NCBI GenBank assembly: GCA_009776375.1 | Contig: WRNW01000006.1 | Span: forward strand, 1 to 36,043 | Source of the DNA: Candidatus Saccharimonadota bacterium | Lineage (GTDB): Bacteria; Patescibacteriota; Saccharimonadia; Saccharimonadales; Saccharimonadaceae | Length of the DNA: 36,043 bases | Direction: 5' to 3' | Part shown: piece by piece, positions 6,743 through 34,619 of the stretch | How the letters are laid out: each line of letters starts with the position of its first letter | Numbering within the stretch: the first letter of the stretch is position 1 | Translations under genes and position numbers: made by a program | The notes under the pieces: model-generated | What the model was told of the DNA's origin: nothing | Databases searched by the model: none | Seen by the model: only the letters and a program-made list of their open reading frames with translations

Positions 6743-9031
6743 ATGAAGTTTATCGTCAAGTCGAAAATAACTGGTTCTCGTCTGCGTCGTGTTATCGAGC
6801 GCAGTGGTGTGGTTTTTGTGCTGGTCTTGTTTTTGCTTAGTTTTGGTGCTGTTTTTGGTGATATCCTTGGGCCACATAGCGTGAGTGCCCTAACCGCTGT
6901 TGATCCGTTAACTATTGCGGCCTGTGGTGGTAATCCAGAATGTTTTGCTTTTACGATTGATACGCGATTGGTAGCTACCGGCGTAACAACTGGTACGGCA
7001 ACGACGTTTTCTATTCCAGTGTCCGGCATCGTCGGTGGTTCTAGTAACACTTATAGCTGGCTGGTCGACTGGGGTGATGGTAGTGCTGTCCAGTCTGTCG
7101 TCAGTAGTGGTACTAGTCACGATTACGCGACCACTGGCGGCGCGGGGCAATACCAAATTACCATCCGACCCAACGGCGCCGCTACAATGGGGTGGATGAA
7201 TGCTTTTGGCTTCTCTAGCGGACCATCATCATCATCGGGAGCTAATACCGATGCTAACAAATACATGTTTCGCTCTATCGACACACCCTTCACCAATCTT
7301 ATGAAAACTGAGGGTGCTATTTATCGTTTTGCTAATGTGTTCTACAATACCCGCAACGCTACGGGTATTCCAGATAACCTTTTTGCTAATATTTCGACTA
7401 CTGGCACTACGAATTTTAGCTATATGTTTTTGAATACTTTCGCTGGTCTGGGACGTAATTCGACGACTGTGACTATTCCTACGGACCTCTTTGATTTTCT
7501 TGATACTAGTAGCGGCACGAATTTCAGCGGCATGTTCAGCGGTACTTTTTCTAGTGCAGGCTCGGGCTCTTTGTGCAATAACACTTTCGGCTATGCTTCT
7601 ACCATTGCTAGTATTCCAGTCGGTTTGTTTGATCCGATTGACACTAGAAACGGTACGGATTTTAGCAATATGTTCGATAGTACTTTCAGCTGTTATGCTT
7701 ATCGATCCACAACAGGTACAATCCCCGCGGGTCTGTTTGATTCGATTAATACCAGTAATGGTACTGGTTTTGGCGCCATGTTCTACCGGACATTTAGCAA
7801 CTACGCTCGTAGTTCAACAGTTGGCACGATCCCGGCTGGTTTATTTGATTCGATTGATACTAGTAATGGCACAAGTTTCTACACTTCTCTCTCTGGAGGT
7901 ATGTTTTACGGAACTTTCAGTGCTTACGCTTACAACTCGACTATTGGTACTATTCCTGCTGGTTTGTTTGATTCGATTAACACTAGTAACGGCGTGAACC
8001 TCCAGAGTATGTTTAATTATACCTTTTCTAATTATGCCAATAGCTCCACTTCTGGTACTATTCCTGCTGGTTTGTTTGATTCTATTGACACCGGTAGCGG
8101 TATAAACTTCGAAAACATGTTCAGCGGTACTTTTAGTAGGTATGCCTATTATTCAACAATTGGCACTATACCAGCTGGTTTATTTGATTCGATTAATACC
8201 AGCAATGGTACTTATTTTAGGGACATGTTTAACAGTACTTTCTCCTACTACGCTTATAATTCAACAGTTGGTACTATTCCTCTTGGTCTGTTCGACTTTC
8301 TTGATACCAATAGTGGTGATACCAGTAATAGTCTGACGTTCAGCTATATGTTTAACGGCACTTTCAATGCTTACGCTATTCGCACGGCCAGGTTTATAGT
8401 TGGTGGTTCGGTTGTCGATACTCAAACTTTTGCGGCGGGACCATACAGTATGAAGAATACTTCTACTGATAACACCCCTAGCACCAACCCGGTCGTTAAC
8501 GCGGGTGATGTGGTTGTACCAACCTATGATTCCGTGGTTCGGACTATTGCGGCGCCGACTGGCGCGTACGCGGGTTATGATTGGTATCGAACAGATGGCA
8601 CATCGTGTGCGGCGCTGGTTCCGACGCCAAATTGTGGCGCGCAGACGACTGACAAGTTGGTTAGTTTTCCGAACACTAGCGAATGGGTTCCGGAAACTTC
8701 GACCGAATATAGCAATGTAACTTTTTATGGTGTGGCGTCGAGCATGCCGGTAACCGTGACATTTGATTCTAATGACGGTTCGGTGGTGGCGGATCAAACT
8801 ATCAACGCGGGTAGTGTCATAGATCGACCGATTGATCCCATCAAGGCAGGCTATACTTTTGCGGGATGGTTCGTCGACCCCGCGCTCACGACGCTTTGGA
8901 ATTTCGCGACTGATATCATTAATGAGGACATAATTCTCTATGCTGATTGGACGTTGATACCAGTTCCACCCGGACCAATCACACCGATCATCCCGGGTGT
9001 GCCGAACGTCGGTGTCGGTTTATTTGAATAA
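6743..9031 (+). CDS. Secreted surface protein with PKD-like, DUF285-type and Flg_new repeats
   Basis: 762 residues. A basic N-terminus and a hydrophobic helix (about 24-45, GVVFVLVLFLLSFGAVFG) make a signal peptide or anchor. A PKD-like segment (YSWLVDWGDGS, SHDY) follows. Residues about 205-550 hold eight or nine repeats of roughly 36-45 residues with the pattern TIPxGLFDxIDTxxGxxFxxMFxxTFS, resembling DUF285/BspA-type surface repeats. Near the C-terminus VTFDSNDGS to YTFAGWFVDP is a Listeria-Bacteroides (Flg_new) repeat. The tail is Pro/Gly-rich and there is no LPXTG. Such proteins are thought to mediate adhesion. In CPR epibionts host attachment is plausible but not shown here. It overlaps natB tail-to-tail by 12 bp. 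Confidence 0.85.
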   Translation: MKFIVKSKITGSRLRRVIERSGVVFVLVLFLLSFGAVFGDILGPHSVSALTAVDPLTIAACGGNPECFAFTIDTRLVATGVTTGTATTFSIPVSGIVGGSSNTYSWLVDWGDGSAVQSVVSSGTSHDYATTGGAGQYQITIRPNGAATMGWMNAFGFSSGPSSSSGANTDANKYMFRSIDTPFTNLMKTEGAIYRFANVFYNTRNATGIPDNLFANISTTGTTNFSYMFLNTFAGLGRNSTTVTIPTDLFDFLDTSSGTNFSGMFSGTFSSAGSGSLCNNTFGYASTIASIPVGLFDPIDTRNGTDFSNMFDSTFSCYAYRSTTGTIPAGLFDSINTSNGTGFGAMFYRTFSNYARSSTVGTIPAGLFDSIDTSNGTSFYTSLSGGMFYGTFSAYAYNSTIGTIPAGLFDSINTSNGVNLQSMFNYTFSNYANSSTSGTIPAGLFDSIDTGSGINFENMFSGTFSRYAYYSTIGTIPAGLFDSINTSNGTYFRDMFNSTFSYYAYNSTVGTIPLGLFDFLDTNSGDTSNSLTFSYMFNGTFNAYAIRTARFIVGGSVVDTQTFAAGPYSMKNTSTDNTPSTNPVVNAGDVVVPTYDSVVRTIAAPTGAYAGYDWYRTDGTSCAALVPTPNCGAQTTDKLVSFPNTSEWVPETSTEYSNVTFYGVASSMPVTVTFDSNDGSVVADQTINAGSVIDRPIDPIKAGYTFAGWFVDPALTTLWNFATDIINEDIILYADWTLIPVPPGPITPIIPGVPNVGVGLFE
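7360..8390 (+). repeat. Tandem coding repeats of the surface protein
   Basis: Eight or nine repeat units with starts near 7363, 7471, 7611, 7717, 7827, 7948, 8057, 8163 and 8271. Neighbouring units share up to about 20 identical bases around a Gly-Leu-Phe-Asp codon block (for example 7948 and 8057). The high DNA identity suggests recent duplication and allows recombinational change in copy number. Confidence 0.8.
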
Positions 9032-18699: not shown

Positions 18700-20622
18700 T
18701 TATATTTCTCCTGGTAGTTCTATATGTAGCAGTCGTGCCGCATTCTCCATAACTTGCTTGGCAGCTTTTACGAGGTTGATACGGAACACTTTGGTATTTT
18801 CATCTGTTGCGCGAGACACTAGGCTGCTCTCATAGAAGGAATTAACGACCCTGGCAAGCTCTGTTAGGTACGCAGCAACCTTATGCGGACTAGCTTTGTC
18901 CGCAGCTTCTTTAACCACTACCGGAAACCACATCACTTCCGTCAGAATGTTTTTTTCTTGCGGCGAGATTTCTGCTGGAAGACTCACTAATCTATCAATA
19001 AAACTATCGTCATTCTCCTCAATCAATTTTCGCAACCTAGCATGTGTATATTGAATCTTTACAGATCCGCTATCAACAATTTTTTCAGCAATGTTAAAAT
19101 TAAATTCCATGTCTTTCTCGTAAGATTGCCTTAAGTCATCGAATATAAGAGCGCTAATACCAATAGCTTTCGCACGCGCTTCATCGCTCTCTGTCCATGC
19201 CGCACCGATATCAGCTCTCCGTTCTTGTATACCTCGACGTGCAGAATCTATTGCCGAATCCATCAGATCATCTAGCATCACGACCTGTCCTTCTCGACTT
19301 TTCATTTTTCTACCATCGACATTAAGGTGACCGAATGATATGTGTCTAACATCACTCAAGGCAAAGTAGCCAAGCTGTTTAGCCATGTTGAATAACTTTA
19401 TACAATGATCACCCTGTTCTTTACCAATTACGTAATAAACTTCATCGGCACCCAATTCGCAAGCCCGATAGCGAATCGCTGCCAGATCACGCGTTAAATA
19501 TACGCTCCCGCCGTTTGGCTTTTGTAGAATCTCTCCTTTCGGAAGATTGTCCTTGCCAAGCATGATTTTGTCATTCATATTGCCTTTACCGTCAATGAGG
19601 GTCTGCGACGGCAATATTATCGAATCATCTTCATCATACTTTAGAACACCTTGCTTAATCGCTTCTTGCAAAACATCTGTCATTTTATCTTCGTAGAAAC
19701 TTTCGCCTTGAATGGCATCGAATTCTATACCAAGTCTGCCATAGGTACCCGCGAATTCCTCTAAGCTCCATTCTCTAAATTGCTGCCAGAGTGCAGTCAG
19801 TTCCGTATCTCCTTCTTCCATTTTGCGCCATAACGTTCTGGCAGTCTCGACCATTTCTGGATTATCTTTACTTTCCTTGTTATATTCCCGATAAATTTCC
19901 AAGAGAGTGTTGGCAGGATTTTCAGCAATCATTTGCTGAAATAAGGGCGCATTCTCCTCCATATGCTTGAAATACATATAAAATATACCGCCAAATTGCG
20001 AGCCCCAGTCACCTATGTGATTGATGCCAAACGAGATATTACCAACAGCTTCTTGCAGGTTCATAAGACTTTGGCCAATGATTGTGGAGCGGAGATGTGC
20101 CACAGTCATTTTCTTAGCGATGTTCGGAGACGAATAATCAATAATAACAACTTTTGGATCGCCGTCCGAGGAAGTGCCATATTTTTCTCCCAAATCCAAG
20201 ACTTGATTTAGAATATCGGTGCCGATTGATTGTTCGTCAATACCAATATTAATGTATGGACCCACCTTGTCTGCTAGTTTAATGTGCTTCAAGGCGCCGA
20301 TGTCGGACAAGTCAAAGTTGTCCATCATCCCATTGTTGTGCACATTAATTGACAAGTCATACTTTTCACGATAATTACTATCCTTGATCTTTTCAGGCAC
20401 CATACCTTGGCCAGGAGAACGGTTGACAAGCCTGCTGATTTCGTTAATAAGCTCTGTTACTACATAAACACCGATTGGTGGTATGTTTTTCTCGACAAAT
20501 TGTCTCTTCTTGCGTTCTAATGCATTTTTAGTTTTTTCATCAACAGTTTTATTCAAGTCTACGAGAGAGAGAGAGAGAGAGAGAGAGAGGATCAGAGGGT
20601 TCAGTATTCGAATCCTCGACAA
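18700..20622 (-). CDS. Second arginyl-tRNA-synthetase-like protein with degenerate HIGH motif, possibly phase-variable
   Basis: About 640 residues from a TTG, class I ArgRS-like. The catalytic region reads SSPNIAKKMTVAHLRSTIIG, where ArgRS normally has HVGH, so the first His and the Gly of HIGH are replaced (TVAH). The KMSKS-like loop is GRKMKSREGQVV. NHIGDWGSQFG and the C-terminal tRNA-binding region ending VFRINLVKAAKQVMENAARL are present. A full canonical argS lies at 32898-34619. The best start signal, GAGGA plus ATG at 20647, is out of frame with this body because of the CT tract at 20563-20589. Only a TTG without a ribosome binding site (20622) is in frame. It may be in an OFF state, or the tract may be mis-assembled. 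Confidence 0.85.
   Translation of the reverse strand: MSRIRILNPLILSLSLSLSLVDLNKTVDEKTKNALERKKRQFVEKNIPPIGVYVVTELINEISRLVNRSPGQGMVPEKIKDSNYREKYDLSINVHNNGMMDNFDLSDIGALKHIKLADKVGPYINIGIDEQSIGTDILNQVLDLGEKYGTSSDGDPKVVIIDYSSPNIAKKMTVAHLRSTIIGQSLMNLQEAVGNISFGINHIGDWGSQFGGIFYMYFKHMEENAPLFQQMIAENPANTLLEIYREYNKESKDNPEMVETARTLWRKMEEGDTELTALWQQFREWSLEEFAGTYGRLGIEFDAIQGESFYEDKMTDVLQEAIKQGVLKYDEDDSIILPSQTLIDGKGNMNDKIMLGKDNLPKGEILQKPNGGSVYLTRDLAAIRYRACELGADEVYYVIGKEQGDHCIKLFNMAKQLGYFALSDVRHISFGHLNVDGRKMKSREGQVVMLDDLMDSAIDSARRGIQERRADIGAAWTESDEARAKAIGISALIFDDLRQSYEKDMEFNFNIAEKIVDSGSVKIQYTHARLRKLIEENDDSFIDRLVSLPAEISPQEKNILTEVMWFPVVVKEAADKASPHKVAAYLTELARVVNSFYESSLVSRATDENTKVFRINLVKAAKQVMENAARLLHIELPGEI
20563..20589. 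repeat. GA/CT dinucleotide microsatellite in the start region of the argS-like gene
   Basis: Twenty-seven bases of strictly alternating G and A on the plus strand (13 units plus one base), read as CT in the gene and coding for Leu-Ser repeats. From the ATG at 20647 the frame after the tract gives Arg-Arg-Leu-Glu and then a stop at TAA. Gaining one unit or losing two would join that ATG to the ArgRS body. Tracts of this length are prone to slipped-strand mispairing. Confidence 0.9.
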
Positions 20623-23599: not shown

Positions 23600-25465
23600 T
23601 TATACTGCATTTAGGTGTTCCTGTAATAAATCCGCCAACACTAATGGTAAGTCGGTTGCTTGTTTTGCCACCTGGGCATCGGGTGCGTAGGTGGTTAAAA
23701 CAGATTTCCCCTCCTCTGTGATGCCAACACCAACTACGATAACACCATCTGTACGGAGTTTTTCCAAATTTTCTTGAACCGTGGACGCATTGTTACTTTC
23801 GCCGTCGGTCATGACGATAACGATCTTTTTTAATTCGCCCGTTTTAATTTTTTCGCGTGTTTCATCGGTCAAATTATTATGTATTGCCGATAGGGAATCA
23901 TAGTCGTTCGTAGTACCTGTAGTTTTACTAATTGCAACCATCGCATCGATTCGTTCTTTTTCGGTTAGTTCTCGCGACATTGATTTAATTGGTGTACCAG
24001 CATTCGTGTCTCCGAATCGATAAATTTCCGAACTAATATCAAGTTGTTTATAGATATCGGTGCATGCGTCGTTGATGATGTTTTGGAAACGTTTTAGAGT
24101 TTCCATCAATAACACCGCCGCGACCAATTGTTCCTGGCGTTTCACACCGCCACCCCAACTCATCGAATCAGATCCGTCACAAACTAGCGTCAGCTCAATC
24201 TCGCCAGCCCTTTTGTCAAGTTTTTCGCGCATTTCAGTATCTTCCCAAACTTTTGGCGTCATGTTTCCGGTATAGACCGACGCAATTAAATCAGCCGGAT
24301 CGACCAAATAATCACCCTCTTCCTGAGGATATTTGGGATGTGGTTTCGGTTTTTTACGATTTGCGATAATTCGATGGATCAATTCTTCTAGTTCATCGAC
24401 AATTTTTTTGTTAGTTTTGAGATTTTTGAGTTCGTTAACTGTTTTGGCTAAATCACGATATTTTTGTAAATCGTTTTTATCGACGCCTAATTTGTCCGCA
24501 TAGTTTTGATCGGCGTTTTCCAGTGGATCGATTGGTTCGCCGTGCGTTTCGCGATACTCGTTAAGTATTTGTTCCAAGTCCTCAGGCTGGAGCGGGCTGC
24601 CGACTTTTTGGTCGAGTTCATCGTAAAATTCCTTGAATACCTCGTTCGGATCAAGCGAGAACGAATCTTGACCATCGGAATCTTCACCACTCTGGCTAGT
24701 GTCAGATTGTTGGTCTTGTTGCTTGTTTCTCTCGTCTTCTAGATCTTGTTCCTTTAATTTTTCCATTAGTGGAACTAGGTAGTAATCCTGTAATTGCCAC
24801 CGTTCTTCTATGGACAAATTGGGATTGGTCATGATTTGCATGAACGGTTTACCAGCCTTGTTGTTCATAGCAAAAATCTCATCTACAGCCGCACGAACTT
24901 CTGAATCAACATTGCACGGTTGATCAGGCAACTGGTTTTCACGCAGCAAACATTCAGCAAATTGGATGTGACGCGGCACATGTTTTCCATTCAATGATGT
25001 CATTAAATCATTAGTTGGAAACAGGGATTTCTCATATATCTCATCACGTACATTGGCAAAACTTTCGTTGGTTTTGGTAATGACGTTACGATTCTCACGG
25101 ATATCCGCCACGCAATTATCGAGACTAGCAAATGCTCGATCGCGGCCAAATCGTTCTAGATATTGCTCGAACTGCGCTGGACCTCCTTGCCTACCAAGTA
25201 AACGTACCATTTCCTCGATATGAGATGTTTCATGCATGGTGCCAAAAACAGTGGCCCGCTCTGGCGATGAGAGATCTGGGTTATCATAAAACATGTCGCC
25301 AATGTAGAGCTCGCCTGTTTTCATATTGACCGCAAAACGACCATCGGGCGATGGTTTGACCGTTAAACTCCCACCAGCAATTGTTTCAAACAGTGCACGG
25401 TTATTTTCAAAAACGTCAACGCCGCTATGACCTTTTGTGTCTGGCCTAATATCTGGAGTACCCAT
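23600..25465 (-). CDS. vWA-domain protein with N-terminal HExxH (zincin-like) motif
   Basis: 621-residue partner of the MoxR ATPase. Residues 74-90 (FGTMHETSHIEEMVRLL) contain HETSH (78-82), a candidate zinc-peptidase motif, with a conserved-looking NCVADIRENR helix downstream. A Gln/Asp/Ser-rich linker (about 240-270) and helical acidic region follow. The C-terminal vWA domain has a MIDAS motif, LVCDGSDSMSWGG (near 435), and IVMTDGESNN (near 550). CobT-like and MoxR-linked vWA proteins work with MoxR AAA ATPases. The ATG is 4 bp after the RT stop, so it is coupled to the DGR reverse transcriptase. Whether the HExxH site is an active protease is not known. Confidence 0.85.
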   Translation of the reverse strand: MGTPDIRPDTKGHSGVDVFENNRALFETIAGGSLTVKPSPDGRFAVNMKTGELYIGDMFYDNPDLSSPERATVFGTMHETSHIEEMVRLLGRQGGPAQFEQYLERFGRDRAFASLDNCVADIRENRNVITKTNESFANVRDEIYEKSLFPTNDLMTSLNGKHVPRHIQFAECLLRENQLPDQPCNVDSEVRAAVDEIFAMNNKAGKPFMQIMTNPNLSIEERWQLQDYYLVPLMEKLKEQDLEDERNKQQDQQSDTSQSGEDSDGQDSFSLDPNEVFKEFYDELDQKVGSPLQPEDLEQILNEYRETHGEPIDPLENADQNYADKLGVDKNDLQKYRDLAKTVNELKNLKTNKKIVDELEELIHRIIANRKKPKPHPKYPQEEGDYLVDPADLIASVYTGNMTPKVWEDTEMREKLDKRAGEIELTLVCDGSDSMSWGGGVKRQEQLVAAVLLMETLKRFQNIINDACTDIYKQLDISSEIYRFGDTNAGTPIKSMSRELTEKERIDAMVAISKTTGTTNDYDSLSAIHNNLTDETREKIKTGELKKIVIVMTDGESNNASTVQENLEKLRTDGVIVVGVGITEEGKSVLTTYAPDAQVAKQATDLPLVLADLLQEHLNAV

Positions 25466-25469
25466 GATG

Positions 25470-26441
25470 CTAAATATTATATAACAATTGTATGATCAAA
25501 TTATAAGAATTACCAAAATTTAACAGTCCGACAATAGATGATAGATTATTTTGACTGAGATTTTTAGTAATACGTCGACGAGTCTTGGGACGAATTACGC
25601 GATAATCTAGATAATTTACCCAACCCAAGAAGTCAGTCCCCGCATTTATAGTCTGAATAAAGATTTTATCCTGATGTAGATTCATTATTAACCGTGATTC
25701 TAAAAAGAGTGTTATGCGTTCTTGATACCAACCTAATTTTTCCGCATCTGCATCTAAAATTACGAAATCATCAACATAACGAATGTAATATTTGGCGCGC
25801 AATTTGTGTTTAATGAACTGGTCGAGTTCATTTAAATAAATGTTAATGAGTAGTTGCGAAGTCACATTACCCAGCGGCAAACCACACGGTTGGCTATTGA
25901 TCCGAAAACTGTCTATAATCTCATTCAAAACTGCTAGTAATTTTGGATCAGCAATCCGCCGAGCAAGAATCTGTTTTAGAACGTGATGATCCACCGTATC
26001 AAAACATTTTCGAATATCACATTTTAGAGTATAACATTGCCGTTGGTTCTTGTTTGATACGCGTCGTGCGAAGTCCCGATAACGATTTAGTGCGCGATGT
26101 AAACCTTTACCAACACGACATGAGTAGACGTCAAAAATAAATTTGCGATCAAAGTAGTCGTAGAGAGCAGCATAAACCGCGTGATGAACGATACGATCAC
26201 CAACCGTGGCCTTGTGGATTATGCGATATTTTGGGTCATGGATAATAAATCGCTGATATGTGCCGTGCCGATATGCGCCCGACAATAACTGGGCACTCAA
26301 ATCCGCCAAACTCGAAAAAGTATGCATCGCAAAATCCGCAACTTCGGGTTTATTTGTTTTACCGCGTCGGAAACTCTCCCAACTCTTTAATAAGTTTTCC
26401 ACCGAGAAAACTGTTGTGTGATCTGGTATACTGTTCTTCAT
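25470..26441 (-). CDS. Diversity-generating retroelement reverse transcriptase
   Basis: About 323 residues from the ATG at 26441. RT motifs in order are HKATVGDRIVHHAVYAALYD, the catalytic LKCDIRKCFDTVDHH, GLPLGNVTSQLLINIYLNEL and the catalytic YIRYVDDFVIL, then the thumb-side MNLHQDKIFIQ and DFLGW. The motif LGNVTSQ fits the [I/V/L]GxxxSQ signature of DGR RTs rather than the QGxxxSP of group II introns. With Avd it would copy the TR RNA with adenine-specific errors and home the cDNA into the VR. The upstream in-frame codon at 26489 is rejected because it overlaps avd. It is followed closely by the vWA gene. Confidence 0.93.
   Translation of the reverse strand: MKNSIPDHTTVFSVENLLKSWESFRRGKTNKPEVADFAMHTFSSLADLSAQLLSGAYRHGTYQRFIIHDPKYRIIHKATVGDRIVHHAVYAALYDYFDRKFIFDVYSCRVGKGLHRALNRYRDFARRVSNKNQRQCYTLKCDIRKCFDTVDHHVLKQILARRIADPKLLAVLNEIIDSFRINSQPCGLPLGNVTSQLLINIYLNELDQFIKHKLRAKYYIRYVDDFVILDADAEKLGWYQERITLFLESRLIMNLHQDKIFIQTINAGTDFLGWVNYLDYRVIRPKTRRRITKNLSQNNLSSIVGLLNFGNSYNLIIQLLYNI
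26427..26432 (+). promoter_or_regulatory. avd promoter (extended -10)
   Basis: TATACT preceded by TGG on the plus strand. The expected start near 26439-26440 is only 3-4 nt before the avd ATG at 26443, so the mRNA has almost no leader. It lies within the first codons of the RT gene on the other strand. Confidence 0.45.
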
Positions 26442-26442
26442 T

Positions 26443-26820
26443 ATGACTATAAACCCTTCATCAACACCAAAATTGTCTGGTATCGCCATGAAGATTTTAG
26501 CAGGTTACAAGAAATGGCATACTCTTTCACGTCATGTCCCAAAAATTCACCGCTATTCACTGGGCGTTAAAATCGATGATTGCTTTGCGGGCTTGGTTGA
26601 ATTGGTAGCCATGGCGCAGTTTTCTGATGTGGAGCTGAGACGTAAATACCTGACCGCAGCAATTGCTAAAAATGATTGCCTGAAATTCATGCTCTATACA
26701 CTATATGAAATAGAGGGAATCGATGAAAAATCTTTCGTTGCCTTATCATCAGACATAGAAGAAGTTGGCAAAATGCTTTATGGTTGGAAGAATAAAATCG
26801 AGACCACAATAAAATCATAA
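26443..26820 (+). CDS. avd: DGR accessory variability determinant (Avd-like four-helix protein)
   Basis: 125 residues with the Avd/23S-rRNA-IVP-like four-helix pattern: YKKWHTLSRHVPKIHRYSLG, then KIDDCFAGLVELVAMAQFS, RRKYLTAAIAKNDCLKFML and the C-terminal EEVGKMLYGWKNKIE. In other DGRs a basic Avd pentamer binds the RT and the TR RNA and is needed for mutagenic copying. Unusually, it lies on the plus strand, opposite to RT, TR and target. Its ATG is one base from the RT ATG, and its stop is 4 bp before the TR. A second in-frame ATG (residue 16) is an alternative start. Confidence 0.88.
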   Translation: MTINPSSTPKLSGIAMKILAGYKKWHTLSRHVPKIHRYSLGVKIDDCFAGLVELVAMAQFSDVELRRKYLTAAIAKNDCLKFMLYTLYEIEGIDEKSFVALSSDIEEVGKMLYGWKNKIETTIKS

Positions 26821-26824
26821 AAGA

Positions 26825-26953
26825 TCAGGTGTCAAACACGAGCCAACGATCATTCGCATTCCCGTCGTCCCTCAACCAGTTCCTGTTCCGGTTGAACTCA
26901 GAACCATTCCACTGGGCGTAAGGCACGTTCCAGTTGCCGTCCGAATCGCAAAC
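26825..26953 (-). repeat. DGR template repeat (TR)
   Basis: 129 bp matching the VR at 27265-27394. On the coding strand it is rich in AAC and AAT codons (Asn), the usual targets for adenine mutagenesis, for example GNWNVPYAQWNGSEFNRNRN. Compared with the VR, 18 adenines are changed in about 15 codons, while nearly all other positions agree. The differences at the stop-proximal end (TTTGACACC here, TTTGAGACT in VR) are non-adenine and mark the IMH*/IMH boundary. An open frame across it (26825-27121) only mirrors the target gene's frame. Between TR and VR there is no other gene. Confidence 0.95.
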
Positions 26954-27198
26954 TCGCGCAATCCGACCATCTGGTTGATCATCCACAAAGCTACCTGGTA
27001 GAATCGTGGCGAACTTTATCATTTTTCCTAGGCATCTATAATGCACCAGTCGGTTGCGCAGACTTGATCTTTTATTGATAAAGAAAAGAAAACCACGCTG
27101 TGAATTAAAATATCGCACCACATTCTAGATTTTCCCGTCTCACAGCAGTGATGTATGGGATTTATCCGCTACATTTATATTCACTGTCTGCGATATTC

Positions 27199-27227
27199 AT
27201 CATATATTTTTTCCGTAGCAAAGTCAA
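27199..27227 (-). promoter_or_regulatory. Candidate promoter for the TR RNA
   Basis: Minus-strand -35 TTGACT (27227-27222), exactly 17 bp, -10 TATGAT (27204-27199). The start near 27192 would yield an RNA that passes through the TR and on through the antisense of avd into the RT gene, which would give a TR-RT transcript. Confidence 0.6.
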
Positions 27228-27264
27228 AAAGTCAACCGCCATGACAAATTTTCAATGACAAAAA

Positions 27265-27394
27265 TCAAGTCTCAAACACGAGCCAACGATCATCCGCATC
27301 CCCGCCGACCCCCAACCAGCCCCAGTACCGGTCGAACTCAGAACCAGGCCCCCCGGGCGAAAGGCACGAACCAGTAGCCGTCCGAAGCGCAAAC
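27265..27394 (-). repeat. DGR variable repeat (VR), with +1 frameshift
   Basis: 130 bp, one more than the TR. It encodes the C-terminus of the MoxR ATPase. Adenine-only substitutions turn TR Asn codons into Tyr, Phe, Asp and Gly, among others. A run of six C (27349-27354, plus strand) replaces a TR stretch with fewer bases and shifts the frame, so translation stops at 27338 (TGA). With the single base removed the frame continues through SEFDRYWGWLG and DDRWLVFET to the stop at 27265, matching the TR frame end. Confidence 0.95.
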
Positions 27395-29617
27395 CACCGA
27401 ACCTGGAAAATGATACCAATTTCCATCCTGGAGTCCAAATTTCGTGACAAGATTTTGATCAAGTGTGTTAATCTTCTCGATAATATATTGTTCTAAACGA
27501 AAATCTGGTAATTGATATCTTTGATTTTTTAGCCAATCCATGATTTCGTGAACCTTGGCTGATGTTTTCCCCATCTTTTGTTTGATATCGTCATTTGATA
27601 AAACTTGAAGTTTTTTGAATTGCTCGGATAGGGGGATGCTATCAATATCGGGATTGGTGGTATATTCGCCAAATTCCGTTGTATCAAGATTAGCAGCCAG
27701 CGCGGCATGATCAGTTGCTCTCGGCGATACCGAATCGTGTCGCAGATTAGCCTTGTTTAGCCAACTGATAGTTTCTAACCAGGATTCTAGTTCCGCGATA
27801 GTTGTCGCTGCTTCTGGTGATTCGGTTCCAGTAGCTGTATCGGACACAAACTCCTTGGTATCCTCAGACGCTTTTTTGTCACGCGCACCCATCGGGTCGA
27901 ACGCAGCAATTTGGCCAATGTTAAATATTTCAGTCATACGTGAAGCAGCAATCTTCTCTTCTTTATTTTTTTCGTCTGTAATAGTCAACCCACTCAAGAC
28001 TCCGTCCGACAGATGCAACTCTTGTTCAGTTTTGGTTGTGAGTAAGCCTTTAATCGCTAGAATTTTTGCAGCTAATTCTCGATCAGATAATGGATATGTT
28101 TCAAAATTCAATGCCACTTGTAATCGATCGTCCAAATACTCTACAAATGATAGGTTTTTGTCTTCGCCCTTTGCGTCTTCGCCCAATAATTGCTTCTGTT
28201 GCCAGCCTTCCAAAATATTTGCGATCGTTCCTTGGGTAAACACCAAGTATTGGAGCGACGGTTTATTGCTACCAACGTCCACCGTGCCAGTAAGCTGAGC
28301 AACTTCATCAGTCATAGTTCCGATATAAGCAGTTTGAATATCAGTAAATGCTTCGAGTAGTTTCGGTATCGTTACAGTTAGATCATATTTGGACATCTTG
28401 ATTTGGCCATGCTCGTTCATTAATCGACTCAGCGCAATATCATAGGCTTCTTCCCCTGGTGTATAATCAATTTTCAGGTTATTTTGCTCAAACTCACGAG
28501 CAATTTCTGGTGGTAGCTCTTGGCGTTCGGGATTTTTCTCTGACTTTAGATTAGCGGTCAGGATGATTTGAAATCCAGGTTGAATAACCACATTGCCGTT
28601 GCCCGGTATATTAATCGTATCGCCCGGGCGAGCGTTGAGAAGTCCTTTGATAAAAACCATCTGTTCCGATGGTAACGCTGTGAATTCATCAAAAATCACC
28701 GCTTTGCCTTCCTGGATCGCTTTGGTTAATGGTCCAGCAATTTCAACGGTTCTGAATGCACCTGATTCGGTTGGTTCAATGCCAGTTTTACCCCAGATTT
28801 GGCTTTCGCGAGTCTGTGGACTACAATAAATCATTTCCGCCTCCTGCCCAGTAAATTCTTCGGCAGCATAGCGCGCCAACGACGTTTTACCTGTACCAGT
28901 TGGTCCGTGGAGAAACATTGGCCGACCCGATAACATCTTTTCGCCAATTTGGTTAATAATTGTGCGTGACGACGGTACCATCGCGATATGACCAGATTTT
29001 GTTAGGTCATTTCTATATGATTCTAACTGCGCCGCTTTATAAATCACTGGCGTCGTTTCCGAGATCTTATCTAGTTCTTTACTAGTAGTATTTTTGGCTA
29101 TGATAGTTTTTTCTAATTTGCCAAATAGAATCGGACGCGCTAATTCGCTCGCCTGCGTTAATTGTAATGCAGTTTTGAGTATGGAGTCGTCCAGGACAGC
29201 TTTACTTATGAATTTTCTGTAGACTCGTTTAAACGCTGGGTAATCTAGACCATAATATTCATTTAGCTTGTCTTTATATTGCTGTTTAGTCACCTCGTTC
29301 CATTCGGTAGTCTTCCTATCGGTATCATAAGTATCGCGAAGTTTTAGCTGCTGGCCCAAACTGGCTATAAGCTCATCCGCAGTAATGATACCAGCCGCAA
29401 TTTCTGGAAAAGTTGCTTCTAGTTTCTCATTGAACAACGTATCGTAGGCTACTGCATCTTCGTCTGTCGCGAGTTCGAATTCACCAAGCTGGTTCTGAAG
29501 CCGCTCGTACTCCCTCATCGCACTCCTAGTTGCCCGCGTTAGCAAGGACAATCCAAACGCAGACGACACTTTTTCTTGCTCGGGCATTTCGGCTTCGTTC
29601 ATAACAGTACTAATCAT
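27338..29617 (-). CDS. MoxR-like AAA ATPase carrying the DGR variable region at its C-terminus (frameshifted)
   Basis: About 759 residues as encoded, or about 790 if the VR frameshift is corrected. A helical N-terminal region (1-220) precedes an AAA module with Walker A FLHGPTGTGKTSLARYA (near 240), Walker B AVIFDEFTALP (near 310), sensor-1 region FQIILTANLKS and an arginine-finger region ERQELPPEIAREFEQ. A helical lid, an acidic linker and a C-terminal variable domain (VVCASDGYWFVPFA) follow. MoxR proteins remodel targets together with vWA partners; here the C-terminus would choose the target and is diversified by the DGR. The ATG at 29617 is preferred to a TTG at 29641, which lies inside the promoter. 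Confidence 0.9.
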   Translation of the reverse strand: MISTVMNEAEMPEQEKVSSAFGLSLLTRATRSAMREYERLQNQLGEFELATDEDAVAYDTLFNEKLEATFPEIAAGIITADELIASLGQQLKLRDTYDTDRKTTEWNEVTKQQYKDKLNEYYGLDYPAFKRVYRKFISKAVLDDSILKTALQLTQASELARPILFGKLEKTIIAKNTTSKELDKISETTPVIYKAAQLESYRNDLTKSGHIAMVPSSRTIINQIGEKMLSGRPMFLHGPTGTGKTSLARYAAEEFTGQEAEMIYCSPQTRESQIWGKTGIEPTESGAFRTVEIAGPLTKAIQEGKAVIFDEFTALPSEQMVFIKGLLNARPGDTINIPGNGNVVIQPGFQIILTANLKSEKNPERQELPPEIAREFEQNNLKIDYTPGEEAYDIALSRLMNEHGQIKMSKYDLTVTIPKLLEAFTDIQTAYIGTMTDEVAQLTGTVDVGSNKPSLQYLVFTQGTIANILEGWQQKQLLGEDAKGEDKNLSFVEYLDDRLQVALNFETYPLSDRELAAKILAIKGLLTTKTEQELHLSDGVLSGLTITDEKNKEEKIAASRMTEIFNIGQIAAFDPMGARDKKASEDTKEFVSDTATGTESPEAATTIAELESWLETISWLNKANLRHDSVSPRATDHAALAANLDTTEFGEYTTNPDIDSIPLSEQFKKLQVLSNDDIKQKMGKTSAKVHEIMDWLKNQRYQLPDFRLEQYIIEKINTLDQNLVTKFGLQDGNWYHFPGSVVCASDGYWFVPFARGAWF

Positions 29618-29640
29618 AACAGATTTTACGCTGTGCGACA

Positions 29641-29646
29641 ATTATA
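29641..29646 (-). promoter_or_regulatory. -10 box of the MoxR/VR gene
   Basis: Perfect TATAAT on the minus strand, giving a start near 29634, about 17 nt before the ATG at 29617. No clear -35. The box overlaps the stop codon of the NYN remnant, so the promoter seems to have been created at that junction. Confidence 0.5.
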
Positions 29647-32897: not shown

Positions 32898-34619
32898 TTA
32901 CATTTTCTCTGGTGCAGTAATCCCAAGAACGTTGAGTTCGCTGCGGAGGATTTCTGCATAGGCCGCGACTAATTGTGTACGGATTTTGGCCCGTGGGTCG
33001 CCCTCGACACGCGAGTTTTCGTAGAATCGATTGAATGTTTGCCCCAATTCGTATAAATAAGTACAGATTAAATGTGGTGCTAGCTCATCGACCGCCGCCG
33101 CGAAGACTTCGGGCCATTCGGTCAATTTGACCATCAATGAACGCTCGTGTTCGTCAAAATCGGTTGCGGTAATCGTTGTTTCCAAGTCGACTTTGCGCAA
33201 AATCGAGCGCGCTCGAGCGTGTGAGTATTGCAAGTACGATCCGCTATTCCCAGTCATATTAACCGATTCATGCGGTTCAAAAATCAGATCAGCACCGAGA
33301 CGATTTTTAAGGAAGGCATATTTGATCGCGCCGAGCGTAGTCGCGTCGTCAGCTCTCCCTTGAGCTTTCCTATATTCATCCGCTACGAGATCGAGTACAT
33401 CGACTGCCCGGAGGAAATTGCCTTTTCGACTACTCATCTTTTCGGCGCCAGCTAGTTTGACCTGTCCGTGCGGAATGTGCAACGTGCGCCGGGCCACCGT
33501 TGGTTCGAATTGTTCGAGACTTTTGAGGACAACTTTCATGTAATCAATAATGTCATTACCGGTGATAATTATTGATCTATCAAAGTGGTAATCCTGCCAT
33601 TTGAGCAGATTCGTCCCGATGTCTTTCGTTTCATAAGTTGGTAATCCCTCGCTATTGACGAAAACCCGGGTGTGCAAACCATACTTTTCACCGTCAAAGA
33701 TTATTGCACCATTAGATTTCGTGTACACTTCAGGGTGTGCCAAAACGGTTTTTAGGCCGATTTTTGCGCCCGCACTTTCGGGATAATATTTTTCGAATTG
33801 GCTACCGATTTTCTCATAAAAAGCGTCAAAGTAAGCATAGCTCCACTCTCGACAAGTCCAGTAAATTTTCGCGAACGGTGATTCGATTTCGTTCTCCTCA
33901 TGCAGAGCATAGATTTTCTGATTATTTTCAACAATCGCCGCTTGGGCCACCGGATCGTCCTCGTAGGCACGGGTTCCCTCCACATAACATCGGGCCATGA
34001 ATTCGATCCTTTGATCCAAAGGTAACAGATCCCCCGCATCTGGCGAAAATAACATTTTCTGAACCAATAACGCATCTTCTGGCGCCGCAGAACCGAGCGA
34101 GAACTCCTTTTCCATAGCCCACATCGTTTTGGCGACATGTAGCCCGACATCACCGCCGAAATTGACGCGGTGGACTGTGCCGCCAGCCGCCTCGATTAGA
34201 TTGGAAATCGCATCGCCGACCACGCTGGTGTAGAGATGGCCAACATGCAAAACTTTGAATGGATTAGGGTCAGAATATTCGGTGACGACAACTTTGTCCT
34301 GATACAAGTTCGACCGACCATAATCCGGTGTCGCCAGCATTTCGCCCAACTCGCGCGCCAAATAAGCGTCCGCGAGACGCAGGTTGATAAAACCCGCCCC
34401 GGCGACTTCAACACTGGTAAAAATGTCTTGTTTCTTTAACTCTGTGGAAATTTTTTCACCAATCTCGCGCGGATTTTTGTTCAAATCTTTCGCCAAAATT
34501 AGCGCTACGTTGGTCGCTAGATCGCCAAATTTCGCCTCGGGTCGCGACAAACTAACCGTCTGGTCAAAACCGAACAAACTTTTGACCGTCTCGCTGATAA
34601 TTCTCGCAATTTTCTCCAT
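32898..34619 (-). CDS. argS: Arginyl-tRNA synthetase (canonical copy)
   Basis: 573-residue class I synthetase that charges tRNA-Arg. Intact HIGH motif in NPFKVLHVGHLYTSVVGDA and intact KMSKS in GAEKMSSRKGNFLRAVDV. The N-terminal Add-1 domain (KFGDLATNVALILAKDLNK) and the C-terminal anticodon-binding domain (LYELGQTFNRFYENSRV) are present. It starts 18 bp after pyrH and probably shares its transcript. Since both signature motifs are complete here, this is the likely housekeeping ArgRS, in contrast to the copy at 18700-20622, from which it differs strongly in sequence. Confidence 0.96.
   Translation of the reverse strand: MEKIARIISETVKSLFGFDQTVSLSRPEAKFGDLATNVALILAKDLNKNPREIGEKISTELKKQDIFTSVEVAGAGFINLRLADAYLARELGEMLATPDYGRSNLYQDKVVVTEYSDPNPFKVLHVGHLYTSVVGDAISNLIEAAGGTVHRVNFGGDVGLHVAKTMWAMEKEFSLGSAAPEDALLVQKMLFSPDAGDLLPLDQRIEFMARCYVEGTRAYEDDPVAQAAIVENNQKIYALHEENEIESPFAKIYWTCREWSYAYFDAFYEKIGSQFEKYYPESAGAKIGLKTVLAHPEVYTKSNGAIIFDGEKYGLHTRVFVNSEGLPTYETKDIGTNLLKWQDYHFDRSIIITGNDIIDYMKVVLKSLEQFEPTVARRTLHIPHGQVKLAGAEKMSSRKGNFLRAVDVLDLVADEYRKAQGRADDATTLGAIKYAFLKNRLGADLIFEPHESVNMTGNSGSYLQYSHARARSILRKVDLETTITATDFDEHERSLMVKLTEWPEVFAAAVDELAPHLICTYLYELGQTFNRFYENSRVEGDPRAKIRTQLVAAYAEILRSELNVLGITAPEKM

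What the first reader, a model, noticed from the sequence alone, without database searches (positions are those of the whole stretch)
23600..29617. Diversity-generating retroelement that diversifies the C-terminus of a MoxR AAA ATPase paired with a vWA protein
Seen: RT with LGNVTSQ and YVDDF, an Avd-like protein, a 129-bp TR and a 130-bp VR in which 18 substitutions all fall on TR adenines. The VR is the C-terminal end of a MoxR-type ATPase, and the vWA gene follows the RT by 4 bp. Known: DGRs usually diversify ligand-binding lectin-like domains, and MoxR ATPases act with vWA partners. Inference: the retroelement retargets an ATP-driven remodelling machine inside the cell. This would be an adaptable intracellular recognition or conflict system rather than a surface adhesin. 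It may relate to MoxR-vWA conflict systems described from comparative genomics.
Basis: partly seen in the sequence, partly recalled or inferred. Interest (0 to 1): 0.88.

Follow-up and report, generated by a model that had tools for sequence, protein, structure and literature searches.

The report
Self-mutating sensor tail on bacterial ATPase
A tiny-genome CPR bacterium carries a gene-mutating retroelement that randomises the tail of an ATP-driven MoxR protein encoded beside its peptidase-like vWA partner; the same gene set recurs in distantly related CPR bacteria, so it is a conserved system that may let these cells recognise ever-changing targets inside the cell.

Summary
On the minus strand lie a MoxR-type AAA ATPase whose C-terminus is a VR, a TR, a DGR-type RT and a vWA protein; Avd lies antisense. 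Eighteen TR adenines are changed in the VR core. The order MoxR-VR / TR / antisense Avd / RT / vWA recurs in Yonathbacteria, Nomurabacteria and other CPR genomes. Over six loci, 86 of 102 TR/VR substitutions fall on adenines. DGR genes adjoin 13 of 19 homologous vWA loci. The vWA proteins carry a conserved HExxH motif, or in two loci a transglutaminase-like domain, so they look like peptidase-vWA effectors; NorQ/NorD are the nearest solved structures. One locus has lost its RT but kept the fused module intact. DGR-diversified MoxR-vWA systems are known from multicellular bacteria, and AAA-CLec targets are reported from CPR. New here are the VR on the MoxR itself, the peptidase-vWA partner, the CPR-type RT, and the absence of a VMAP. 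Use as an intracellular recognition or conflict system is plausible but untested.

The parts
27338..29641 (-). MoxR-like AAA+ ATPase ORF (767 aa as assembled; ends prematurely inside the VR). Walker A GPTGTGKT, Walker B VIFDEF
   Evidence: PF07728 AAA_5 E=5.7e-15; best solved relatives of its family profile are NorQ, E=3.4e-05; motifs
27268..27571 (-). C-terminal variable module of the MoxR (about 100 aa when read through the frameshift)
   Evidence: Profile of MoxR C-termini hits VR-bearing targets of other CPR DGRs (L078 E=8.9e-11, L100 2.1e-09, L081 2.7e-08) among 5347 ORFs; translation through the shift
27260..27394 (-). Variable repeat (VR)
27347..27354 (-). T>G plus 1-nt insertion in a G-run (C-run on + strand) that frameshifts the VR; premature TGA at 27338-27340
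26832..26954 (-). Template repeat (TR); 3' edge differs from the VR at three C positions, as expected of IMH*/IMH (that reading is from general DGR knowledge)
26443..26820 (+). Avd accessory protein, antisense to the TR-RT unit; its ATG (26443) lies head-to-head with the likely RT ATG (26441)
   Evidence: PF22296 E=7.3e-11, NF033474 E=1.2e-10 though below its cut-off, phrog_3206 E=1.3e-13; same antisense placement in nearly all CPR DGRs examined
25470..26489 (-). DGR reverse transcriptase (LGNVTSQ, YVDD); likely start 26441
   Evidence: PF00078 E=2.6e-20; phrog_1423 E=2.9e-94; groups with CPR DGR RTs
23600..25465 (-). vWA protein with N-terminal HExxH domain (predicted zincin-type metallopeptidase) and C-terminal MIDAS vWA
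   Evidence: PF00092 E=3e-11; AlphaFold2 mean pLDDT 77; best solved match NorD vWA in the NorQ-NorD complex, E=1.3e-06
25220..25234 (-). HETSH (HExxH) motif; H78, E79 and H82 invariant in the first alignment
   Evidence: motif table over all vWA homologues
24164..24178 (-). MIDAS motif DGSDS (DxSxS)
   Evidence: D430 and S434 invariant; S432 also; present in all full vWA homologues, with T for the first S in L053/L054

Best explanation
This is a compact, apparently mobile CPR cassette: a diversity-generating retroelement whose hypervariable module has been fused to the C-terminus of a MoxR-type AAA+ ATPase that works with a dedicated peptidase-vWA protein. Shown by sequence: RT, TR, VR and Avd are all present; substitutions concentrate on TR adenines; the VR encodes the end of the MoxR; the order is conserved across CPR lineages. 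Inferred: TR RNA is copied with errors at A and homes into the 3' end of the MoxR gene, so cells of a population carry MoxR rings with different C-terminal recognition surfaces. The module acts as a changeable ligand- or substrate-binding head. When it binds its target inside the cell, the MoxR ring uses ATP to act on its vWA partner, as NorQ does on NorD. In the vWA protein this activates, or delivers the target to, the N-terminal peptidase (HExxH zincin-like; transglutaminase-like in two homologous loci). The likeliest use is recognition of fast-changing foreign proteins (phage or other mobile elements, or host-cell factors) with a proteolytic output.
For: Same order and orientation (MoxR-VR / TR / antisense Avd / RT / vWA) in Yonathbacteria L115 and Nomurabacteria L116 and in L141, L142 and L151; partial in L051, L143 and L150; vWA moved upstream in L140. 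Pooled over six MoxR-VR loci, 86 of 102 substitutions at TR adenines against 23% adenine, P about 1e-38. DGR RT next to 13 of 19 vWA homologues found by vWA search, against roughly 1% expected: P=2.7e-21, and 2.5e-13 even at a 5% background. In the RT tree WIN, L115, L116, L140 and L141 group together (SH-aLRT 88) inside the CPR RTs, and the vWA and MoxR trees join WIN, L115, L116, L139, L140 and L142 with support 100/100, as expected of a cassette inherited largely as a unit. MoxR family nearest NorQ and vWA nearest NorD and midasin MIDAS, a known ring-plus-vWA pair. HExxH kept in 15 vWA homologues (window included) and HExxxH in five others; Transglut_core in L056 and L151 (E=3.8e-08, 2.3e-16). 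L139 lost the RT (70-aa remnant) but keeps an intact in-frame module on its MoxR, so the module is useful as such. No hydrophobic segments.
Against: The assembled VR of this genome is out of frame, and so is that of L115 (+1 G, near the very end); either assembly errors or null alleles. No reads, so variation within a population is not shown. The peptidase assignment rests on a motif, three preceding strands and a helix in a model; Pfam finds no peptidase in the window protein. The C-type lectin fold of the module was not detected by Pfam, PDB profile search or profile comparison, and its AlphaFold model is poor (pLDDT 39). No known defence gene neighbours were recognised and PADLOC gave only generic hits. 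The vWA profile used for most of the 13/19 count was built from DGR-linked members, so that proportion is biased upwards.
Confidence: 0.6

Rival explanations
1. Substrate-specificity or quality-control machine: MoxR-vWA acts as an insertase or chaperone (like NorQD, RavA-ViaA, CobNST) on the cell's own proteins, and the DGR varies which clients it handles; there is no conflict role.
For: Closest solved relatives are NorQ/NorD and midasin, which are assembly machines. MoxR-vWA pairs of the same family without a DGR in view exist (L052, L055, L110, L144, L145).
Against: Random hypermutation is hard to reconcile with fixed native clients; patchy presence (13 of 384 genomes; 7 of 380) is unlike housekeeping; the peptidase-type domain on the vWA is swapped between unrelated folds.
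Confidence: 0.2
2. Host or partner interaction: the variable MoxR tail is exported or acts at the cell surface in attachment to host cells, as suggested for CPR DGRs in general.
For: CPR bacteria are mostly episymbionts, and earlier authors proposed host interaction for CPR DGRs (reported in PMC10907252).
Against: Neither MoxR nor vWA has a hydrophobic segment or signal-like stretch; an ATP-dependent AAA+ ring needs cytosolic ATP.
Confidence: 0.1
3. A decaying or accidental association: the DGR inserted next to a MoxR-vWA pair, its VR module was fused by chance, and the window copy is now dead (frameshifted VR).
For: VR frameshift here and in L115; RT remnant in L139.
Against: Identical gene order at 35-44% protein identity in several CPR lineages; RT, Avd and MoxR reading frames are otherwise intact; L140 and L141 have in-frame VRs with adenine-specific changes.
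Confidence: 0.1

Closest known systems
VMAP and related MoxR-vWA ternary conflict systems with DGRs (Kaur et al. 2020, PMC7159879; Dore et al. 2024, PMC10907252)
   Same: MoxR ATPase + vWA protein + DGR-diversified C-terminal domain; peptidase domains (including rare metallo- and transglutaminase-like ones) among the effectors; cytoplasmic in most cases
   Different: There the variable domain is on the vWA or a separate target, with a VMAP third component and clade 5 RTs of multicellular bacteria. Here the VR is on the MoxR, the peptidase-like domain is on the vWA, no VMAP, CPR-type RT with antisense Avd, and the VMAP-MoxR N-terminal motifs are absent
CPR AAA ATPase-CLec DGR targets (Paul et al. 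2017, as reported in PMC10907252; original not held)
   Same: [quoted passage not shown] quite possibly the same or an overlapping set of genes
   Different: As far as the held literature shows, no vWA partner or MoxR subtype is mentioned. In my sample of 47 other CPR DGR targets none carries an AAA domain by Pfam; PMC8144416 says that clade 2 CPR targets typically lack recognisable domains
NorQ-NorD, RavA-ViaA and midasin (MoxR/dynein-clade AAA+ with vWA/MIDAS partner)
   Same: Ring ATPase with vWA partner; NorQ, NorD and midasin MIDAS are among the best solved-structure matches
   Different: No DGR, no variable tail and, from general knowledge, no peptidase-type domain on the vWA partner
Classical phage DGRs (BPP-1 type, Vibrio phage VP58.5, Bacillus phage BalMu-1)
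   Same: RT, Avd, TR/VR with adenine mutagenesis
   Different: The protein next to the DGR in VP58.5 and BalMu-1 is a SUMF1-type protein and Avd is in the same orientation as the RT; RT about 33-38% identical

Membership tests
Diversity-generating retroelement | RT of DGR type (SQ motif in domain 4, YxDD) | tested here: met
   LGNVTSQ, YVDD; phrog_1423 E=2.9e-94; tree with CPR DGR RTs
Diversity-generating retroelement | TR/VR pair with substitutions at TR adenines | tested here: met
   19/24 in the window alignment, P=4e-9; 86/102 over six loci
Diversity-generating retroelement | Avd-type accessory protein | tested here: met
Diversity-generating retroelement | VR at the 3' end of an open target gene | tested here: inconclusive
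   Met in L139 (RT lost), L140 and L141; in the window the VR is frameshifted
Diversity-generating retroelement | VR diversity in a population | not testable with these tools
   No reads. Assembly gaps (N-runs) fall in the VR of L116 and L151, which is only suggestive
VMAP ternary conflict system | MoxR ATPase + vWA protein | tested here: met
   conserved pairing
VMAP ternary conflict system | N-terminal WxhapG and PsWRxa motifs in the MoxR protein | tested here: not met
   pattern search over 19 MoxR homologues: WxhapG once (L139), PsWRxa never; neither in the window
VMAP ternary conflict system | VMAP third protein | tested here: not met
   Window neighbours are an AAA_14/DUF4143 ATPase and a ribonucleotide reductase-like protein (reading of the sequence); no gene next to the cassette was seen to recur in L115 or L116. 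No VMAP profile was run as such
[quoted passage not shown]
   VR lies in the MoxR gene
MoxR clade of AAA+ | Similarity to MoxR proteins rather than other AAA+ | tested here: met
   AAA_5; NorQ best in PDB; the helix-2 insert was not checked structurally
C-type lectin fold of DGR targets | CLec/FGE domain containing the VR | tested here: inconclusive
   Homologous to other CPR VR modules; no Pfam, PDB or profile link to CLec; poor model
Zincin metallopeptidase | HExxH in a helix, after a beta-sheet, with a third metal ligand | tested here: inconclusive
   HExxH conserved; lies in helix 68-91 after three strands in the model; third ligand (perhaps D121) and activity not tested

The most novel reading that the evidence does not exclude
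CPR bacteria carry a self-contained, ATP-driven, continually re-aimed proteolytic recognition system: a DGR hypermutates the recognition tail of a MoxR ring, which switches on or feeds a vWA-linked peptidase whose catalytic domain is exchanged between loci (zincin or transglutaminase-like). It would be a coupling of DGR and MoxR-vWA separate from the VMAP systems of multicellular bacteria, and a form of adaptive recognition in cells with genomes of about 1 Mb or less.
Probability: 0.4. Interest if true: 0.82.

Novelty: new variant of a known kind. Interest (0 to 1): 0.62.

Why it matters
DGR targets of CPR bacteria typically lack recognisable domains (PMC8144416), so what their DGRs do is an open question. 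Here the variable module sits on a protein of readable biochemistry, with a conserved partner and a plausible enzymatic output, in cassettes spread over several CPR lineages. It gives a testable handle on CPR DGR function and suggests that coupling targeted hypermutation to MoxR-vWA machines was not confined to multicellular bacteria, the setting on which the current interpretation (defence of multicellular forms) rests.

Tried and rejected
Considered and rejected: (a) chance similarity of TR and VR (P=4e-9; same pattern in relatives); (b) membership in VMAP systems (motifs and third gene absent; VR on the other protein); (c) a phage-borne element: vWA and MoxR alignments found no relative in 2.9 million viral contigs; (d) a second VR in the genome: none; (e) non-standard code or designed frameshift in the VR: no support; an assembly error or null allele is likelier. 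Led nowhere: a 7-row vWA alignment was too diverse for the contig scans; the AlphaFold model of the MoxR tail (pLDDT 39); CLec recognition; comparison of VR against flank divergence among L147-L149 showed no clear excess in the VR, so it neither shows nor excludes recent activity there; Rfam and tRNA scans empty. The excess of VR frameshifts in MoxR targets (2 of 6 against 1 of 50, Fisher P=0.03) is too small a sample to build on. Paul 2017 and Wu 2018 were not held.
Full report
WHAT IS THERE. The window is one contig of a 733-kb, 85%-complete genome. Read on the minus strand, the locus is: MoxR-like ATPase (29641-27338), VR at its 3' end (27394-27260), TR (26954-26832), RT (26489-25470) and vWA protein (25465-23600). 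Avd is on the plus strand (26443-26820), antisense to the rest. Family assignments: AAA_5 E=5.7e-15, RVT_1 E=2.6e-20, VWA E=3e-11, bAvd E=7.3e-11; the RT and Avd match phage DGR families at E=2.9e-94 and 1.3e-13. The RT has the LGNVTSQ and YVDD motifs. The TR matches nothing else in the genome except the VR, and there is no second DGR RT.

TR/VR. In the core, 18 TR adenines are replaced in the VR. One T>G change and one inserted base are also present, and three C changes lie at the 3' edge. Over the slightly longer alignment 19 of 24 substitutions are at adenines, P=4e-9. Whether this is an assembly error in a hypervariable site or a real null allele cannot be told without reads.

RELATIVES. 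A search with the vWA protein in 380 genomes of the phylum found six other genomes; in three of them a DGR RT lies a few kilobases away. A scan of GTDB genome contigs with a vWA alignment gave four loci. Candidatus Yonathbacteria (L115) and Candidatus Nomurabacteria (L116) have exactly the window's order and orientation, with the VR at the end of the MoxR gene. L117 is the same contig as L051, where the sequence ends before the target. A profile search in 384 genomes of the class of L115 gave 12 more genomes, and a search of 49 genomes in the class of G527 one more. Among these, L141, L142 and L151 have the full order; L143 and L150 have the Avd-RT-vWA part on short contigs; L140 has the vWA moved upstream of the MoxR; L139 keeps MoxR with an in-frame module and the vWA but only a 70-aa RT remnant; in L147, L148 and L149 the DGR has two or three separate small VR proteins around a MoxR-vWA pair or its vWA (the MoxR is not in view in L149); in L053 and L054 a MoxR-vWA pair lies next to a DGR, whose target in L054 is a different protein. 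Pairs without a DGR in view: L052, L055, L056, L110, L144, L145, L146.

STATISTICS. Over six MoxR-VR loci, 86 of 102 TR/VR substitutions fall on TR adenines, which make up 23% of positions (P about 1e-38). DGR RT genes (one a remnant) adjoin 13 of 19 vWA homologues found without asking for a DGR. The background is roughly 1% (my estimate from 103 of 380 genomes with RTs), P=2.7e-21, and 2.5e-13 if the background were 5%. The profile behind most of these hits was built from DGR-linked members, so the proportion is biased upwards, although six of the 19 hits show no DGR.

TREES. In the vWA tree the window joins L115, L116, L139, L140 and L142 at 100/100; in the MoxR tree the same six group at 100/100. 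In the RT tree WIN, L115, L116, L140 and L141 group together (SH-aLRT 88) within a CPR RT group that excludes three phage RTs, while L142, L143, L150, L151 and L051 fall elsewhere among CPR RTs (short search, long branches). Reading: a cassette mostly inherited as a unit, moving among CPR lineages, with some RT exchange or repeated recruitment.

THE MODULE. The last ~100 residues of the MoxR proteins are homologous to the VR-bearing ends of other CPR DGR targets: a profile of four MoxR tails finds L078 (8.9e-11), L100 (2.1e-09), L081 (2.7e-08), L102 and L068, and apart from such targets only short ORFs on the TR or VR side, among 5347 ORFs. So a standard CPR variable module has been fused to a MoxR. 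None of 47 other CPR targets has an AAA domain by Pfam. Whether the module has the C-type lectin fold could not be shown.

THE PARTNER. The vWA domain has an intact MIDAS, and its best solved match is the NorD vWA domain in the NorQ-NorD complex, with midasin MIDAS domains also among the best; the MoxR family profile's only PDB hits are NorQ. The N-terminal half carries an HExxH motif, invariant in the first seven sequences aligned (L110 carries one extra residue, HEIAAH) and found in 15 homologues including the window, with HExxxH in five others. In the model (pLDDT 77) it sits in a helix after three strands. In L151, a DGR-linked locus, and L056 this region is instead a transglutaminase-like domain (E=2.3e-16, 3.8e-08). 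A catalytic-type domain that changes while MoxR, vWA and in L151 the DGR stay is what one expects of an effector; that is inference.

MECHANISM. Shown: anatomy, adenine-directed substitution, conservation of the cassette, pairing of MoxR with a peptidase-like vWA protein, retention of the module after RT loss in L139. Inferred: hexameric ring, ligand binding by the module, ATP-driven action on the vWA protein, peptidase output, and the nature of the targets. No hydrophobic segments are present, so a cytosolic role is favoured.

KNOWN OR NEW. DGR-linked MoxR-vWA systems were described by Kaur et al. 2020 (PMC7159879) and extended by Dore et al. 2024 (PMC10907252) in cyanobacteria, Gammaproteobacteria and others; there the variable domain is on the vWA or a separate target and a VMAP protein is usual. 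Dore et al. cite Paul et al. 2017 for AAA-CLec targets as the commonest architecture in CPR; that paper was not held, so overlap with the present loci is likely but unchecked. Roux et al. 2021 (PMC8144416) state that CPR clade 2 targets typically lack recognisable domains. Searches for papers joining Patescibacteria DGRs with von Willebrand or NTPase terms found none in the held library. The present system is therefore a new variant of a known kind: VR on the MoxR itself, peptidase-type vWA partner, no VMAP, CPR-type RT with antisense Avd.

Noticed in passing
L051-L109: In nearly all CPR DGRs examined Avd is antisense to the RT and convergent with the TR, so an Avd transcript could run into the TR antisense; phage DGRs VP58.5 and BalMu-1 have Avd in the RT orientation.
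   Followed up: partly
window 27349-27354 and L115 2375-2492: Two of six MoxR VRs are frameshifted by one base within G-runs, against about 1 of 50 other CPR VRs; a small sample, perhaps assembly, perhaps real off-states.
   Followed up: partly
L147, L148, L149: A DGR with two or three VR proteins of about 270-280 aa flanking MoxR and vWA genes in close relatives; VR not fused to MoxR.
   Followed up: partly
L139 122-688: A second, module-only protein (189 aa), whose end is 82% identical in DNA to the end of the MoxR gene, in the locus that lost its RT.
   Followed up: partly
window 18700-20622 and 32898-34619: Two different arginyl-tRNA synthetases within one 36-kb window; the first lies next to an M20 peptidase and near an Asp/Glu-type (cysteate-racemase-like) racemase gene.
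   Followed up: partly
window 6743-9031: Repetitive protein of 762 aa with a Listeria-Bacteroides repeat (Flg_new) near its C-terminus, a likely surface protein.
   Followed up: no
L116 6317-6369, L151 14038-14048: Assembly gaps (N-runs) fall inside the VR of the MoxR gene, as might happen if the site is hypervariable in the sampled population.
   Followed up: partly
L062, L067, L075 (and L054, L070): A distinct family of long CPR DGR targets (626-711 aa where complete) sharing an LELCPAExGP C-terminal module; no Pfam domain in the one scanned singly (L062).
   Followed up: no
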